Assembly: GCA_030655315.1 (NCBI GenBank)
Contig: JAURVT010000019.1
Location: 1-53,134, forward strand
From: Nocardioidaceae bacterium
GTDB taxonomy: Bacteria > Actinomycetota > Actinomycetes > Propionibacteriales > Nocardioidaceae
DNA: 53,134 nucleotides
Reading direction: 5' to 3'
Part shown: piece by piece, positions 12,109-16,668 of the stretch
How positions within the stretch are numbered: the first letter of the stretch is position 1
How the letters are laid out: the number at the start of each line of letters is the position of its first letter
Program-made: the position numbers and the translations under genes
Notes under the pieces: generated by a model
Seen by the model: only the letters and a program-made list of their open reading frames with translations
The model's database searches: none
What the model was told of the DNA's origin: nothing

Positions 12109-13488
12109 TCAGGCGTGGACGGCGGGGTCGTCGACGGGCGGCGGGTCGCCGTCGGTGAAGCGGTCGTTGACGAAGTACAGGACGACGCCGACGGCCAGCA
12201 TGCCGGCGCACCAGACCAGGGCGCCCGGGTCGTCGACGGCGGTGTAGACGAGCAGGCCGGCGTTGCCGACCACGCCGATCCACAGCAGGACCGTGGGGGC
12301 CGTGTAGTGCTCGTGTTCGACGGAGGCCGCGCGCAGCTTGAGCGCCGACGCGCACACCATCCCGTAGACCGCGATCAGGAACACGACCGTGACGGTCGCG
12401 AGGCGGTCGACGTCCGCGCTCAGGAGCAGCAGCACGACCAGGCTCGCGGTGAAGACGATCGCGACCCAGGGCGTGCGCCGCCCCGGGTGCACCCGCGCGA
12501 AGACCCGCGGCATGACGCCCTGGCGCGCCATCCCGTACATGATCCGCGACTGCGCGACGAGCGAGACGAGCGCGGTGTTGGTGACCGCGACGAGGGCGAT
12601 CGCCGAGAACACCTGGTCGGGCACCGGGATCGGGCCGTTCTGGACGACGGTCAGCAGGCTGCCGGCCGCGCCGCCGTCGGCCGCGAGCTCGTCGATCGGC
12701 GCCACCATGGCCGCGATCAGGGCGATCACCACGTAGAGGACGCCGGCCAGCGCCATGCCGCCGATCAGGGCCTTGGGGAACACCTGGCTCGGGTTCTTGG
12801 TCTCCTCGGCGACGTTGGCCGCGTTCTCGAACCCCGTCATCGCGAAGAACGCGAGCACGGCGCCGCTGAGGACGCCGAGGACCGGGTTGCCCTCGAACTG
12901 CAGGATCGGCGCGAAGTCGGCGTCGCCGTTGACGATCACGACCACCCCGACGAGCAGCACCAGGCCGAGGCCGATGGTCTCGATGACCGTCATCACCATG
13001 TTGGCCCAGACCGACTCCGAGATGCCGCGGAAGTTCACCAGCGACAGCACGACGATGAACGCCACCGCGACCACCGAGGTCGGGACGCCCGACACGAACT
13101 GCTCGAAGTAGCTGCCGCCGAACACCCGCGCGAGCGTGCCGGCCGCGGCGATCGTCGCGGCCAGCAGGCAGAAGGTGGTGATGAACGTGGTCGGACGGTG
13201 GTCGAAGGCCTTGTGCACGTAGAGCGACGCGCCCGCGGCCTGCGGGTACTTGGTGATCAGCTCGGCGTAGGCGAAGCCGGTCATCAGCGCGATCATCACG
13301 CCGACGACGAACGACAGCCAGAACGCCCCGCCGACGGTGAAGGCCATCACGCCGATCAGCGCGTAGATGCCCGAGCCGAGCACGTCGCCCAGCACGTAGA
13401 AGAACAGCAGGCGCCCGGTGATGGGCCGCGCCAGCTCCTCGGTCTGCCCGGAGCCGGGCGATTCTCCAGTCATGGTGCGGTCGCTCAT
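12109..13488 (-). CDS. APC superfamily amino acid permease
   Basis: A 459-residue, 12-helix transporter. Its first helix region GDVLGSGIYALIGV carries the unwound G-S-G-I-Y substrate site of the APC superfamily, and helix 6 shows FFAMTGFENAANVAEETKNP, a conserved APC signature. The start at 13488 (MSDRTMTG) is preferred because GAGGAGG lies 9 nt upstream; an in-frame ATG at 13539 has no ribosome site. The substrate is probably an amino acid or amine. It heads the Usp-glycerate kinase group. Its promoter must lie between 13489 and the long inverted repeat starting at 13580. Confidence 0.92.
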   Translation of the reverse strand: MSDRTMTGESPGSGQTEELARPITGRLLFFYVLGDVLGSGIYALIGVMAFTVGGAFWLSFVVGVMIALMTGFAYAELITKYPQAAGASLYVHKAFDHRPTTFITTFCLLAATIAAAGTLARVFGGSYFEQFVSGVPTSVVAVAFIVVLSLVNFRGISESVWANMVMTVIETIGLGLVLLVGVVVIVNGDADFAPILQFEGNPVLGVLSGAVLAFFAMTGFENAANVAEETKNPSQVFPKALIGGMALAGVLYVVIALIAAMVAPIDELAADGGAAGSLLTVVQNGPIPVPDQVFSAIALVAVTNTALVSLVAQSRIMYGMARQGVMPRVFARVHPGRRTPWVAIVFTASLVVLLLLSADVDRLATVTVVFLIAVYGMVCASALKLRAASVEHEHYTAPTVLLWIGVVGNAGLLVYTAVDDPGALVWCAGMLAVGVVLYFVNDRFTDGDPPPVDDPAVHA

Positions 13489-13579
13489 CGTGGCGGCCTC
13501 CTCGTGCTGTGAGGCTCGCCATCCTGTCAGTACCCCCACCCCGGGCGCGACCGTTGCAACTGCCTACCACTTTCCCCCT

Positions 13580-13810
13580 GTCGGATTCCCAGGTAGGCAC
13601 GGTCTTCCGACAGGAACCCGGAGAACTCTCCGGGTTTCCGTCGGATCACCAGGTGGGGTGGGGCGGGAGTGACGGGCGGGACGACGCGCCGCCGTCCCGT
13701 CCCAGCCGCCCCGTCAGCCCCGCCGGCACCACCTCACCCGGAGGACCGACGGATACCCGGAGAGTTCTCCGTGCCCGCGTCGGAAGACCGTGCCTACCTG
13801 GGAAACCGAC
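13580..13810. repeat. 231-bp long imperfect inverted repeat between the lut operon and the permease gene
   Basis: A left arm (13580-13644) and a right arm (13746-13810) are inverted copies of a 65-bp sequence with 58 matching positions by eye. Weaker complementarity continues inward, so almost the whole segment can fold back. Each arm also holds its own small hairpins, for example CCCGGAG-AACT-CTCCGGG at 13617-13634 and GTCGG/CCGAC at 13580-13584 and 13607-13611. It begins 8 bp after the stop of lutC. It may be a terminator, a REP/BIME-like element or a MITE; no coding frame explains it. This is all that fills the 329 bp between lutC and the APC permease. Confidence 0.85.
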
Positions 13811-13817
13811 GGACCCG

Positions 13818-14405
13818 TCAGCCGGCGACGATGACGTGGAGGGTGCGGGGGCCGTGGACGCCCTCGACGCGGTCGAGCTCGATGTCGCTGGTGGCGGACG
13901 GGCCGCTGATCCAGGTCTGGGGGCGGGACGGATCGAGCACGGCGACGGCGTCGGGGACGTCGGCCACGACCTGGTCGGCGCGCACGACGCAGACGTGGAG
14001 GTCGGGGACGAGGGTCGCGGCGCGGCGCCCCTCCCCCGGCCCGTGCGACAGCACGATCGTGCCGGTGACGGCGATGCCGCAGGTGGCGCCCGTGACGACG
14101 GCCGCCACGCCGTCGAGCTCGGCGGACGTGAGGCCGTCGTCGACGACGGCGCCCTCCACGTGCCACGGCAGACCCGGCGGGACGACGACGCGCGCGCCGT
14201 CGGGCAGCGCCTCGGCGATCCGCGCCTCGACCTCGTCGGCCGAGCAGCGCACGACGACGGCCTTGTAGTCCTCGACGCGCTCGAGGAACAGGTCGAGGTC
14301 GCCGCGGGTGTCCGTGCGGTAGCCGCGCGCCACCGTGACCGGCGACGTGTCGGCGTGGGCCAGCGCCCCGCGCACCCGGGCGAGGATGTCGTCGCGCGCG
14401 GTCAT
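13818..14405 (-). CDS. lutC: LutC, LUD-domain subunit of L-lactate oxidation complex
   Basis: A 195-residue LUD (DUF162) protein, with the family's blocks VVPPGLPWHVEG, ATCGIAVTGTIVLSHGPGEGRRAATLVPDLHVCVV and the C-terminal ISGPSATSDIE. With LutA and LutB it forms the iron-sulfur complex that oxidises L-lactate to pyruvate. The ATG overlaps the stop of lutB (ATGA, 14402-14405). It is the last gene of the rhamnose operon; its stop is followed directly by the long inverted repeat. Slightly shorter than Bacillus LutC (about 240). Confidence 0.93.
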   Translation of the reverse strand: MTARDDILARVRGALAHADTSPVTVARGYRTDTRGDLDLFLERVEDYKAVVVRCSADEVEARIAEALPDGARVVVPPGLPWHVEGAVVDDGLTSAELDGVAAVVTGATCGIAVTGTIVLSHGPGEGRRAATLVPDLHVCVVRADQVVADVPDAVAVLDPSRPQTWISGPSATSDIELDRVEGVHGPRTLHVIVAG

Positions 14406-15883
14406 CGTCCGCCCCCGGTGCGCTTCCACCAGCGGCGGAACGACTCGCGCGGCGGCGCCGGCATGTCGCGCGCCCCGGTCCACCTGCCACCCGGACCGGG
14501 CAGCCAGGAGATGACGTGCCGCCCACCGCCCGCGCGACGACCCTTGGCCCCCTTGCGGTCGAGGAACCGGCCGGCGAGGCCGGACACCTGCTCGGCGGCG
14601 TCGAGACGGGACCCCGACGACAGCGTCAGTGCGGCCCCCTTCATCGCGACGGCCTCGGGCTTGGGGACGCCGCCGCGGTGCGCGTCGACGACCTGCGCGC
14701 GCAGGTCGACCAGCACCGAGGGGATGTCGATCCGCACCGGGCAGGCGTCGAAGCAGGCCCCGCACAGCGAGGAGGCGTACGGCAGCGCATCGGTCTGCTC
14801 GTCGACGCCCACGCCCTTGAGCAGCGGGTTGAGGATCGCGCCGATCGGCCCCGGGTACACCGAGCCGTACGCGTGGCCGCCGGTGCGCTCGTAGACCGGG
14901 CAGACGTTCAGGCAGGCCGAGCAGCGGATGCAGCGCAGCGCCTGGCGCCCCACCTCGTCGGCGAGCGCGTTGGTGCGGCCGTTGTCGAGCAGCACGACGT
15001 GCATCTCCTGCGGCCCGTCGCCGGGGGTGACCCCGGACCAGGTCGACGTGTACGGGTTCATCCGCTCGCCGGTGGACGACCGCGGCAGCAGCTGCAGGAA
15101 CACGTCGAGGTCGGACCAGGTGGGCAGGATCTTCTCGATCCCCACCACCGACACGAGCACCTCGGGCAGCGTCAGGCACATCCGCCCGTTGCCCTCGGAC
15201 TCGACGATCACGAGCGTGCCGGAGTCGGCGATCGCGAAGTTGGCGCCCGAGACCGCGACCTTGGCGCGCAGGAACTTCTCGCGCAGGTGCAGCCGGGCCG
15301 CCTCGGCCAGGCGGGCGGGCTCGTCGCTCAGGTCGTCCGGGGCCGGACGACCGGCGCCCGCCATCTTCTCGCGGAAGATCTCGCGGATCTCGGCCCGGTT
15401 GCGGTGGATCGCGGGCACCAGGATGTGGCTGGGCAGGTCGTCGCCGAGCTGCACGATCAGCTCGGCGAGGTCGGTCTCCCAGGCGGCGATGCCCTCGGCT
15501 TCGAGCGCCTCGTTCAGCTCGATCTCCTGGGTGGCCATCGACTTGATCTTGACCACCTCGTCGACGCCGTGGCCCTTCGCGATGGACGCGACGACGGCGC
15601 ACGCCTCGGCGGCGTCGTTGGCCCAGTGCACCGTGACGCCGCGCGCGGTCAGCTGCTCCTCGAGCATCACGAGGTGCTCGTCGAGGTGCATCAGGGTGTT
15701 GTCCTTGATCGCCGCCCCGGCCAGGCGCAGCTCCTCCCAGCCGTCCACCTCGGCGACGACCTTGAGGCGCTTGTCGCGGATGGTCGACGTCGCGTGCGCG
15801 AGGTTGGCGCGCAGCTGGGTGTCGGCCAGCGCCTCGCGCGCGGCGGCGGGGAAGGCGGGCATGCCGACGAACGTGTGGCTCAT
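14402..15883 (-). CDS. lutB: LutB, iron-sulfur subunit of L-lactate oxidation complex
   Basis: A 493-residue protein with an N-terminal LUD domain (SHILVPAIHRNRAEIREIF; GANFAIADSGTLVIVESEGNGR) and a C-terminal ferredoxin-like part holding two cluster motifs: CIRCSACLNVCP (near 317) and CGACFDACP (near 373), enough for two [4Fe-4S] clusters. It passes electrons from lactate oxidation, probably to a quinone-linked acceptor. Its start forms TGATG with the end of lutA (1-bp overlap), and its end overlaps lutC. Length matches the family (about 475-495). Confidence 0.95.
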   Translation of the reverse strand: MSHTFVGMPAFPAAAREALADTQLRANLAHATSTIRDKRLKVVAEVDGWEELRLAGAAIKDNTLMHLDEHLVMLEEQLTARGVTVHWANDAAEACAVVASIAKGHGVDEVVKIKSMATQEIELNEALEAEGIAAWETDLAELIVQLGDDLPSHILVPAIHRNRAEIREIFREKMAGAGRPAPDDLSDEPARLAEAARLHLREKFLRAKVAVSGANFAIADSGTLVIVESEGNGRMCLTLPEVLVSVVGIEKILPTWSDLDVFLQLLPRSSTGERMNPYTSTWSGVTPGDGPQEMHVVLLDNGRTNALADEVGRQALRCIRCSACLNVCPVYERTGGHAYGSVYPGPIGAILNPLLKGVGVDEQTDALPYASSLCGACFDACPVRIDIPSVLVDLRAQVVDAHRGGVPKPEAVAMKGAALTLSSGSRLDAAEQVSGLAGRFLDRKGAKGRRAGGGRHVISWLPGPGGRWTGARDMPAPPRESFRRWWKRTGGGR

Positions 15884-16668
15884 CAGCCTGCCCTCCGGGC
15901 GTCGACGGGGTGCGCGCCCGGGTCGGGCGTCGCGGGGTCGTCCTCGGTGGCGGCCAGGATCTCGGCCAGGTGCATGGTGCGCACGCGCGAGCGCTGCCGC
16001 GAGAGCAGCCCGCCGACGTGCATCAGGCAGGAGTTGTCGCCCGCGACGAGCACCTCGGCGCCCGTGCCGGCCACCTCCCGCGCCTTGTCCGAGCCCATGG
16101 CCACCGACGTGTCGGCGTTCTTGACCGCGAACGTGCCGCCGAAGCCGCAGCACTGGTCCGCACCGGGCAGCTCGACGAGCCGCAGCCCGCGCACCTGGCG
16201 CAGCAACTGCAGCGGACGGTCGCCGACGCCCAGCATCCGCAGCGAGTGGCAGGTCGGGTGGTAGGTGACGGCGTGCGGGAAGTACGCGCCGACGTCGGTC
16301 ACGCCGAGCACGTCGACGAGGAACTCCGACAGCTCGTGGACCTTCGGGGACAGGTCGGCGACGGCGGCCTGCAGCGCGGGGTCGCCCGAGCGCCGCGCGA
16401 CGATCGCGTGCTGGTGCCGGGCAGAGCCCGCGCACGAGCCCGACGGCGTGACGATCGCGTCGTACCCGGCGAAGGCGTCGGCGTACCCGCGCACCACCGG
16501 GACGGCCTCGTCCAGGTAGCCGGTGTTGACCATGGGCTGGCCGCAGCAGGCCTGCCCGGCCGGGAACTCGACGTCGACGCCGAGGCGTCGGAGCAGCCGC
16601 ACCACGGCCTGCCCCGTCCCGGGGAACATCGCGTCGTTGATGCAGGTGACCATCAGGGCGACCCTCAT
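15883..16668 (-). CDS. lutA: LutA, CCG-domain subunit of L-lactate oxidation complex
   Basis: A 261-residue protein with two cysteine-rich CCG domains, visible as ACCGQPMVNTGY and QCCGFGGTFAVK, which bind an iron-sulfur cluster and are shared with glycolate oxidase GlpC/GlcF. It opens with the typical MRVALMVTCINDAMFPGTG. A strong GGAAGGAG lies before the ATG at 16668, but the start also overlaps the rhaB stop (ATGA, 16665-16668), so lactate oxidation is translationally linked to rhamnose catabolism. Confidence 0.95.
   Translation of the reverse strand: MRVALMVTCINDAMFPGTGQAVVRLLRRLGVDVEFPAGQACCGQPMVNTGYLDEAVPVVRGYADAFAGYDAIVTPSGSCAGSARHQHAIVARRSGDPALQAAVADLSPKVHELSEFLVDVLGVTDVGAYFPHAVTYHPTCHSLRMLGVGDRPLQLLRQVRGLRLVELPGADQCCGFGGTFAVKNADTSVAMGSDKAREVAGTGAEVLVAGDNSCLMHVGGLLSRQRSRVRTMHLAEILAATEDDPATPDPGAHPVDARRAG

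What the first reader, a model, noticed from the sequence alone, without database searches (positions are those of the whole stretch)
13580..13810. 231-bp long inverted repeat directly behind the operon
Two 65-bp arms match at 58 of 65 positions in inverted orientation, with inner complementarity and smaller hairpins within each arm. That is far longer than an ordinary terminator. It could be a REP/BIME-like element, a non-autonomous mobile element, a dsRNA/RNase III site or a strong termination structure.
Basis: seen in the sequence. Interest (0 to 1): 0.6.

Follow-up and report, generated by a model that had tools for sequence, protein, structure and literature searches.

The report
Repeated hairpins at bacterial gene ends
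The long inverted repeat behind the lactate genes is one of at least 44 copies of a palindromic DNA family that sits just after gene stop signals in this one bacterium, probably ends transcripts there, and serves as the landing site of a jumping gene, several relatives of which elsewhere also land in palindromes.

Summary
The inverted repeat is real: arms match 58 of 65, and the 231 bases fold at -193.8 kcal/mol (z -15.6). It is not specific to the lut operon. I count at least 44 places of one family in the genome: 14 long (213-254 bp), 13 short (92 bp), 10 half copies, 3 split by an insertion sequence, 4 divergent or minimal. A core motif occurs 71 times against 0 for its control; a longer pattern has 0 matches in the other public genomes scanned. 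Copies lie a median 7.5 bp from a stop codon; 23 of 39 lie between convergent genes, 3 between divergent ones. No REP transposase and no target duplication (0 of 27) were found. Best reading: a lineage-specific REP/MITE-like palindrome acting as a bidirectional transcript end (placement shown, termination inferred). The three copies found of an IS481-family element all lie in it, at one point, with 15-16-bp duplications. Of 15 readable insertions of transposase relatives, 9 are centred in palindromes of other sequence, 5 lie at tRNA or tRNA-like 3' ends, 1 at neither.

The parts
13580..13810 (.). whole palindromic element, long form, 231 bp
13580..13602 (+). left outer conserved block GTCGGATTCCCAGGTAGGCACGG
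   Evidence: (CCAGGTAGGC invariant in 40 of 40 arms)
13603..13606 (+). left variable 4-nt spacer (TCTT); the equivalent position is where the IS481-family element inserts in other copies
13607..13644 (+). left inner stem-loop CCGACAGGAACCCGGAGAACTCTCCGGGTTTCCGTCGG
   Evidence: covariation
13656..13734 (.). G/C-rich centre (G-rich left half, C-rich right half) with a further hairpin
13746..13783 (-). right inner stem-loop
13784..13787 (-). right variable 4-nt spacer
13788..13810 (-). right outer conserved block, inverted copy of the left one
13818..14405 (-). lutC-like gene (LUD domain); its stop codon lies 7 bp from the element
14402..15883 (-). lutB-like gene (LUD domain, 4Fe-4S, LutB_C)
15883..16668 (-). 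lutA-like gene (CCG cysteine-rich domains)
12109..13488 (-). amino-acid permease gene, same strand, whose start lies 91 bp beyond the element

Best explanation
The 231-bp repeat is one copy of a lineage-specific family of dispersed extragenic palindromes built from modules. A full arm has an outer block (GTCGGATTCCCAGGTAGGCACGG), a variable AT-rich 4-nt spacer, a stem-loop with a 15-bp stem, and a second 4-nt spacer. Short copies are block-core-block (92 bp), half copies are block-core plus a G-rich end, and long copies are two half copies head to head. Placed a few bases after stop codons and mostly between convergent genes, the transcribed hairpin most likely marks the 3' end of mRNAs from both sides, as a U-tract-less intrinsic terminator and/or a barrier to 3' exonucleases. 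The family probably spread by copying with a transposase supplied in trans that is not identified here. An IS481-family element inserts at the spacer, a site outside genes. Shown: family, modules, placement, restriction to this lineage in the collections scanned, IS insertions. Inferred: termination or stabilisation, and the copying mechanism.
For: Copy number: 40 places, four more; the exact motif CCCAGGTAGGCNNGG occurs 71 times against 0/0 for the reversed control; two of the 71 lie inside genes and are not elements. Alignments A1 and A2 show the modules. Inner stem covariation 0.122 against 0.090 sd 0.010, 0 of 500 shuffles; cells with both sides changed 30 against 19.5, 1 of 500. Placement (39 elements): 23 convergent, 13 co-directional, 3 divergent, against 6271/16334/6362 bp of such gaps in 400 kb of the same genome, chi-square p 9e-8; median distance to a stop 7.5 bp, 33 of 36 within 30 bp; the 13 co-directional copies crowd to the stop side (mean relative position 0.17, KS p 4e-5). 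The only 4 of 66 outer ends reading GACGG abut a gene so that T|GA makes its stop codon. IS481-family element: 3 of 3 copies found lie in the family.
Against: No transcript data. No U-tract and no classical terminator call at this site. Three copies lie between divergent genes, where termination makes little sense. The 13 short copies show no covariation (0 double changes, fewer than shuffles), so their outer stems are kept by sequence, not by pairing alone, which suggests sequence recognition or recent spread rather than selection for a hairpin. In one search the number of pairs with a double change is not above shuffles (5 against 4.5). Gene calls come from my own simple caller. No mobilising enzyme was found, and 0 of 27 complete copies have a direct repeat of 2-8 bp abutting their ends.
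Confidence: 0.62

Rival explanations
1. Selfish non-autonomous mobile palindrome (MITE or REP-like) with no host function. The 3'-end position only reflects purifying selection against insertion into genes and promoters.
For: Found in one genome only; sequence rather than pairing conserved in the short form; element sequence reaches into the ends of neighbouring reading frames in several copies (negative distances; stop codons made at the element edge); modular long, half and short forms.
Against: Spacing of 5-20 bp from stops is tighter than avoidance of promoters requires (co-directional KS p 4e-5); inner stem covaries; no abutting duplication (0 of 27) and no partner transposase seen.
Confidence: 0.25
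2. Binding site for a chromosomal DNA-binding protein: CGG-N4-CCG dyads inside a strictly conserved 23-bp block, as for a nucleoid or condensation protein; the hairpin is secondary.
For: CCAGGTAGGC invariant in 40 of 40 arms; spacers variable and 75% A/T in a genome of 73% G+C (400-kb sample) beside conserved CGG and CCG; placement between convergent genes also suits supercoiling factors.
Against: A simple binding site would not need 92-254 bp palindromes or a covarying inner stem; strongly biased towards 3' ends, few at promoters.
Confidence: 0.1
3. Terminal repeats of an autonomous element carrying the AbiEi-like gene found between two facing half copies (L035).
For: Two half arms face each other 1.28 kb apart around a 328-aa gene with an AbiEi_4 match just under the curated cut-off (24.9 against 25 bits).
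Against: Only one such arrangement; the four other places in this genome that match the protein do not coincide with any element place listed; the left half arm sits between convergent gene ends like ordinary copies.
Confidence: 0.03

Closest known systems
REP / BIME elements (GTAG- and CGTC-tagged repeats, PMC3733652, passages)
   Same: Dispersed extragenic palindromes, mostly downstream of coding regions, single or paired, IS targets; the string GTAG occurs in the conserved block
   Different: 92-254 bp instead of 20-40 bp; GTAG lies inside a paired stem instead of forming an unpaired tag; no RAYT (PF01797) found in the genome
MITE-type palindromes (Correia/NEMIS, ERIC; recalled)
   Same: About 100-250 bp, long terminal inverted repeats, intergenic, can run into gene ends
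   Different: No abutting target duplication, no parent element found, no Rfam match of note, no match in other genomes
TRIT terminator motif of Mycobacterium tuberculosis (RNIE; recalled, paper not held)
   Same: A repeated, sequence-conserved hairpin behind genes of a high-GC actinobacterium
   Different: No sequence link tested; not known here to be as long or modular
REP-targeting insertion sequences (IS621, IS1397, ISPpu9/10, ISRm22; PMC1525189, abstract and part of Discussion)
   Same: An insertion sequence that inserts at a fixed point of a dispersed extragenic palindrome
   Different: The part read lists IS3, IS110, IS4, IS256 and IS5 members; here it is IS481 family with 15-16-bp duplications (10-18 bp in relatives), and relatives use palindromes of other sequence or tRNA 3' ends

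Membership tests
REP (GTAG/CGTC superfamilies) | 20-40 bp imperfect palindrome, many copies, extragenic, near gene ends | tested here: not met
   Copy number and placement met; size not met, 92-254 bp apart from one 32-bp solo unit
REP (GTAG/CGTC superfamilies) | unpaired GTAG or CGTC tag at one end | tested here: not met
   GTAG is at positions 14-17 of the block but pairs with CTAC in 13 of 13 short copies
REP (GTAG/CGTC superfamilies) | RAYT (Y1_Tnp) gene in the genome | tested here: not met
   0 matches to PF01797; 5 of 14 control genomes ring. RAYT-less REP hosts are known (PMC3733652, passages)
MITE | terminal inverted repeats | tested here: met
   23-bp ends paired at 98.3% of cells in 13 short copies
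MITE | target site duplication | tested here: not met
   0 of 27 complete copies have an abutting direct repeat of 2, 3, 4, 5, 6 or 8 bp; shuffled pairings give 0.6 at 2 bp. No empty site from a close relative was available
MITE | autonomous partner with the same ends | tested here: not met
   No second element type with these ends noticed among the motif hits; candidate in L035 disfavoured
intrinsic terminator | G+C-rich hairpin just after the stop codon | tested here: met
intrinsic terminator | U-tract after the hairpin | tested here: not met
   0 terminator-like sites in 13480-13830; U-tract-less terminators in actinobacteria are recalled, not tested
intrinsic terminator | transcripts end there | not testable with these tools
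   no RNA data
IS481 family (the insertion sequence) | rve-type DDE transposase with IS481 features, terminal inverted repeats, target duplication | tested here: met
   rve 2.2e-15, LZ_Tnp_IS481 3.9e-5; inverted repeats; 15, 15 and 16 bp duplications after pairing flanks by spacer

The most novel reading that the evidence does not exclude
A subclade of IS481-family insertion sequences with ~10-18-bp target duplications is specialised for structured 3'-end elements: palindromes (probable transcript ends) of unrelated sequence in several genera, at least two of them dispersed families, with a sister branch at tRNA 3' ends. The transposase would recognise dyad or hairpin-forming DNA shape rather than one sequence, and the palindrome families would act as gene-free landing pads.
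Probability: 0.3. Interest if true: 0.68.

Novelty: new variant of a known kind. Interest (0 to 1): 0.5.

Why it matters
It turns an oddity behind one operon into a genome-wide family with a testable role at mRNA 3' ends in a genome of 73% G+C (400-kb sample), of a kind where U-tract terminators are scarce (recalled). It also supplies a concrete set of insertion sites in several genomes for asking whether an IS481 branch chooses targets by DNA shape, which would add IS481 to the insertion-sequence families known to use extragenic palindromes as safe sites.

Tried and rejected
Rfam, permissive search of 13400-14000: only a meaningless E 0.79 hit. Plasmid collection: no match to the element or, at E <= 1e-60, to the transposase. 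RAYT as mobiliser: no PF01797 match in the genome. AbiEi-like gene between two facing half arms as an autonomous element: rejected because the other places matching the protein are not at element places. Alternative local hairpin within the outer 32 nt: three of its four spacer pairs fail in 35-39 of 40 sequences and there is no clear covariation (0.016 against 0.012, 92 of 500 shuffles), although one solo copy (L077) does form it. Downstream of lutC in relatives: one search read four of seven relatives and the own locus on the wrong strand. Redone: lutC is found in all seven, its downstream DNA is readable in six (in L089 the fetched stretch gives no usable stop), and a search of the seven loci with the element and its arms gives no match at E <= 10. 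First transposase tree was faulty because several loci were read on the wrong strand; redone, where I dropped one near-duplicate row (G249b) before building.

Limits of the counts: one search scored 40 of 167 first-look candidates, 150 of 4000, 40 of 249 and four per genome, so degenerate copies or further insertion-sequence copies may be missing. The motif hits C14:37641 and C56:19175 lie inside genes and are not counted.

The 39 elements in the placement test are the 40 places less the three split by the IS, plus the degenerate half copy C9:286730 and the solo unit C9:185252; the two C6 copies (50134, 50465), also in a convergent gap, were left out. Boundaries of half copies at their G-rich end were set by eye, so their distances on that side are soft. 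The two runs of my gene caller disagree on one element, L036 (co-directional, then convergent). The 400-kb background was 20 stretches that I chose from four contigs, not a random draw, and it holds one of the 40 places (C6:41288, in L106) and three of the four added ones. Two of 13 transposase-relative loci (L130, L135) are cut at a contig end and their junctions were not read.

Statements that something is not in print rest on seven paper searches in the open library only. Among the listings and passages seen I did not find an IS481 subgroup targeting palindromes or tRNA ends, but subscription papers and ISfinder were not searched.

After the filing check I added. They changed: the lutC neighbourhood in relatives, the duplication test (now computed), the tRNA claim (now 3 of 5 called by ARAGORN), and wording of counts.

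Full report
OBSERVATION. Arms 13580-13644 and 13746-13810 match at 58 of 65 positions; 300 shuffles of the same bases reach at most 44, and this tile is the best of 913 tiles over the window. The repeat extends to 104-nt arms at 81%, and an inner 24-nt hairpin is reported in the left arm; the right arm holds the matching stem-loop. As RNA from the lut strand it folds at -193.8 kcal/mol, z -15.6, 0 of 200 shuffles as low. It lies 7 bp behind the stop of a lutC-like gene (LUD domain; lutB-like and lutA-like genes precede it) and 91 bp from the start of a permease gene on the same strand.

A FAMILY. Searching the window's own genome (4,176,123 bases, 57 contigs; 73% G+C in a 400-kb sample) gave 40 distinct places (40 of 167 first-look candidates were scored). 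The exact motif CCCAGGTAGGCNNGG occurs 71 times against 0 and 0 for the reversed control; two of the 71 lie inside genes. A covariance model built from 40 arms added a degenerate half copy at C9:286730 and two weaker copies at C6:50134 and C6:50465, and the motif scan added a 32-bp solo unit at C9:185252. I count 44 places: 14 long (213-254 bp), 13 short (92 bp each), 10 half copies, 3 split by an insertion sequence and 4 divergent or minimal ones.

MODULES. A full arm reads outer block GTCGGATTCCCAGGTAGGCACGG, four variable bases, stem-loop CCGAC...GTCGG, four variable bases, then either the inverted outer block (short form) or CCGTGCC-like sequence and a G-rich end (half form); two half forms head to head make the long form. 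CCAGGTAGGC is invariant in 40 of 40 arms. The first spacer is 75% A/T, most often TCTT (29 of 66). The inner stem covaries in the 40 arms (score 0.122 against 0.090 sd 0.010, 0 of 500 shuffles; 30 cells changed on both sides against 19.5, 1 of 500), although the count of pairs with a double change is not above shuffles (5 against 4.5). Against a pure pairing explanation, the 13 short copies have no double changes at all, fewer than shuffles: their ends are held by sequence or by recent common origin. None of 27 complete copies has an abutting direct repeat of 2-8 bp.

DISTRIBUTION. A search of 99 other genomes of the family, drawn evenly from a larger group, with an 81-bp arm gave one 31-bp match at E 4.7e-4 and nothing else; a search of the genus returned only the own genome. 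The 20 fixed bases of CCCAGGTAGGCACGG-N4-CCGAC gave 0 matches in genome contigs (84,980 species, own genome possibly left out) and 0 in viral contigs. Plasmids gave no match. Seven lutB loci from relatives hold no copy at E <= 10. The family is therefore peculiar to this lineage as far as these collections show.

PLACEMENT. With my own codon-usage gene caller, trained on 400 kb of the same genome, 39 elements fall 23 between convergent genes, 13 between co-directional and 3 between divergent genes, against 6271, 16334 and 6362 bp of such gaps (chi-square p 9e-8; against numbers of gaps 57, 277 and 53, p 6e-14; convergent against divergent p 4e-5). The nearest stop codon lies a median 7.5 bp away; 33 of the 36 elements that have a neighbouring stop lie within 30 bp. 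The 13 co-directional copies crowd to the stop side (mean relative position 0.17, KS p 4e-5). In all four ends that read GACGG instead of GTCGG (4 of 66 ends), the neighbouring gene ends two bases into the element, so that T|GA makes its TGA stop. That suggests insertion at gene ends followed by remaking of the stop. Placement is thus terminator-like; three divergent copies do not fit.

INSERTION SEQUENCE. Three copies of one 1.3-kb insertion sequence were found (three left ends, three right ends, 40 of 249 candidates scored); its 395-aa transposase matches rve (2.2e-15) and the IS481 leucine zipper (3.9e-5). All three lie in this family at the same point, CACGG-N4-CCGACA. Four of the six flanks are at contig ends, and the one complete copy, on C11, joins a GAGA flank to a TTTT flank. 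Pairing flanks by spacer gives duplications of 16, 15 and 15 bp, so the C11 junction is either mis-assembled or rearranged between IS copies. The insertion point is about 20 bp from the centre of the palindrome, at the spacer, not at its loop.

THE SAME HABIT ELSEWHERE. Relatives of the transposase were fetched (Haloechinothrix halophila, 3 copies at 48%; a Phycicoccus MAG, 45%; both Actinomycetes; 11 of 394 genomes of the window's class with E <= 1e-60, own included; 13 loci outside the own genome, of which two are cut at a contig end and were not read). Empty sites were joined for the 15 readable copies, with 200 base shuffles each. Nine have a palindrome centred within 2.5 bp of the duplication: three in Haloechinothrix, GATCTTGAG..GTGG/CCAC..CTCAAGATC (z 11-23); three in G285, GATTTCGGTGC../..GCACCGAAATC-like (z 7.3-7.5); G328 (z 7.9); G197 (z 8.3); and Phycicoccus, weak (10-bp arms, z 3.3, its score equalled by the best shuffle). 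One (G066, L137) has none (z 1.8). The other five (G249 two, G309, G374, G445) have 15-16-bp duplications: ARAGORN calls a tRNA whose 3' end is the duplication in three (L138, L139, L141); in L134 and L136 the sequence beside the duplication reads like a tRNA 3' end by eye but ARAGORN calls none. Four of these five also have a strong palindrome near by (z 4.7-11.5), but 23-30 bp off-centre, so nearness of a palindrome alone proves little; the centring does. Two of the palindromes are themselves dispersed: 6 intact copies in Haloechinothrix (control 0) and 2 in G285 (control 0). With the same gene caller, not trained on those genomes, a gene ends 31-118 bp before 5 of 5 intact Haloechinothrix copies fetched (of 6), and both G285 copies lie between convergent gene ends. 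In the transposase tree the tRNA group (100/100) is sister to the G328/G285 group (98/98); deeper forks are weak.

HOST. No call names the host. Of the 8 best lutB relatives listed on named plasmids, 7 are actinobacterial by recalled taxonomy, at 61-67% (Tsukamurella, Streptomyces, Rhodococcus and others; the eighth is Deinococcus), which with the G+C content suggests an actinobacterium (inference).

LITERATURE. PMC1525189 (abstract and first of two parts of the Discussion) reports REP-targeting members of IS3, IS110, IS4, IS256 and IS5, not IS481. PMC3733652 (passages) defines REPs as 20-40 bp with unpaired GTAG or CGTC motifs at one end, mostly downstream of genes, GTAG ones often with RAYTs. 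PMC10045372 (passages) says most IS481 members make 6-bp and not a few ~15-bp duplications. PMC6794481 and PMC2516522 (passages) give CTAG targets for IS481 members. The TRIT terminator motif is recalled; its paper is not held.

VERDICT. The element works like a REP/BIME- or MITE-type extragenic palindrome placed as a transcript end, but fails defining tests of REPs (size, unpaired tag, RAYT) and of MITEs (duplication, partner), so it is not filed as either. Shown: structure, family, modules, placement, restriction to this genome in the collections scanned, IS targeting. Inferred: bidirectional termination or 3'-end protection, and spread by copying. The IS481 link is the part a specialist would not expect. 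Shape recognition remains a conjecture, since the own IS lands off-centre and target sequences may simply have co-diverged with the transposases.

Noticed in passing
L138 1409-1423, L141 1409-1423, L139 1412-1427, L136 1337-1352, L134 1358-1373: IS481-family relatives with 15-16-bp duplications at tRNA 3' ends in four unnamed class members; ARAGORN calls the tRNA in L138, L139 and L141, the other two are tRNA-like by eye only.
   Followed up: partly
L035 3021-4303 (G000 C9:80720-82002): A 328-aa protein with an AbiEi_4-like N-terminus sits between two facing half copies of the palindrome; probably coincidence.
   Followed up: partly
L076 3060-4420 (G000 C11): The one complete IS481-family copy joins flanks with different target duplications (GAGA and TTTT spacers): mis-assembly or IS-mediated rearrangement. 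Contigs C3, C4, C15 and C50 break at the same IS.
   Followed up: partly
L106 10134-10214 and 10465-10545: Two related palindromes 331 bp apart that lack the outer block on both sides (core with G-rich or C-rich ends only), in a gap between convergent genes.
   Followed up: partly
L124-L128 near 1501-1542: Haloechinothrix halophila has its own dispersed family of 42+-bp palindromes with a variable 12-bp centre after gene ends, target of an IS481 relative.
   Followed up: partly
L025, L028, L030, L031, L032, L033, L044 (one outer end each): One outer end reads CCACG/CCAGG/CCTGG/CGAGG instead of GTCGG and, in most, runs on into a CCCACCCGTC-like flank resembling the family's own G-rich centre, as if a further half unit had once been joined there.
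   Followed up: no
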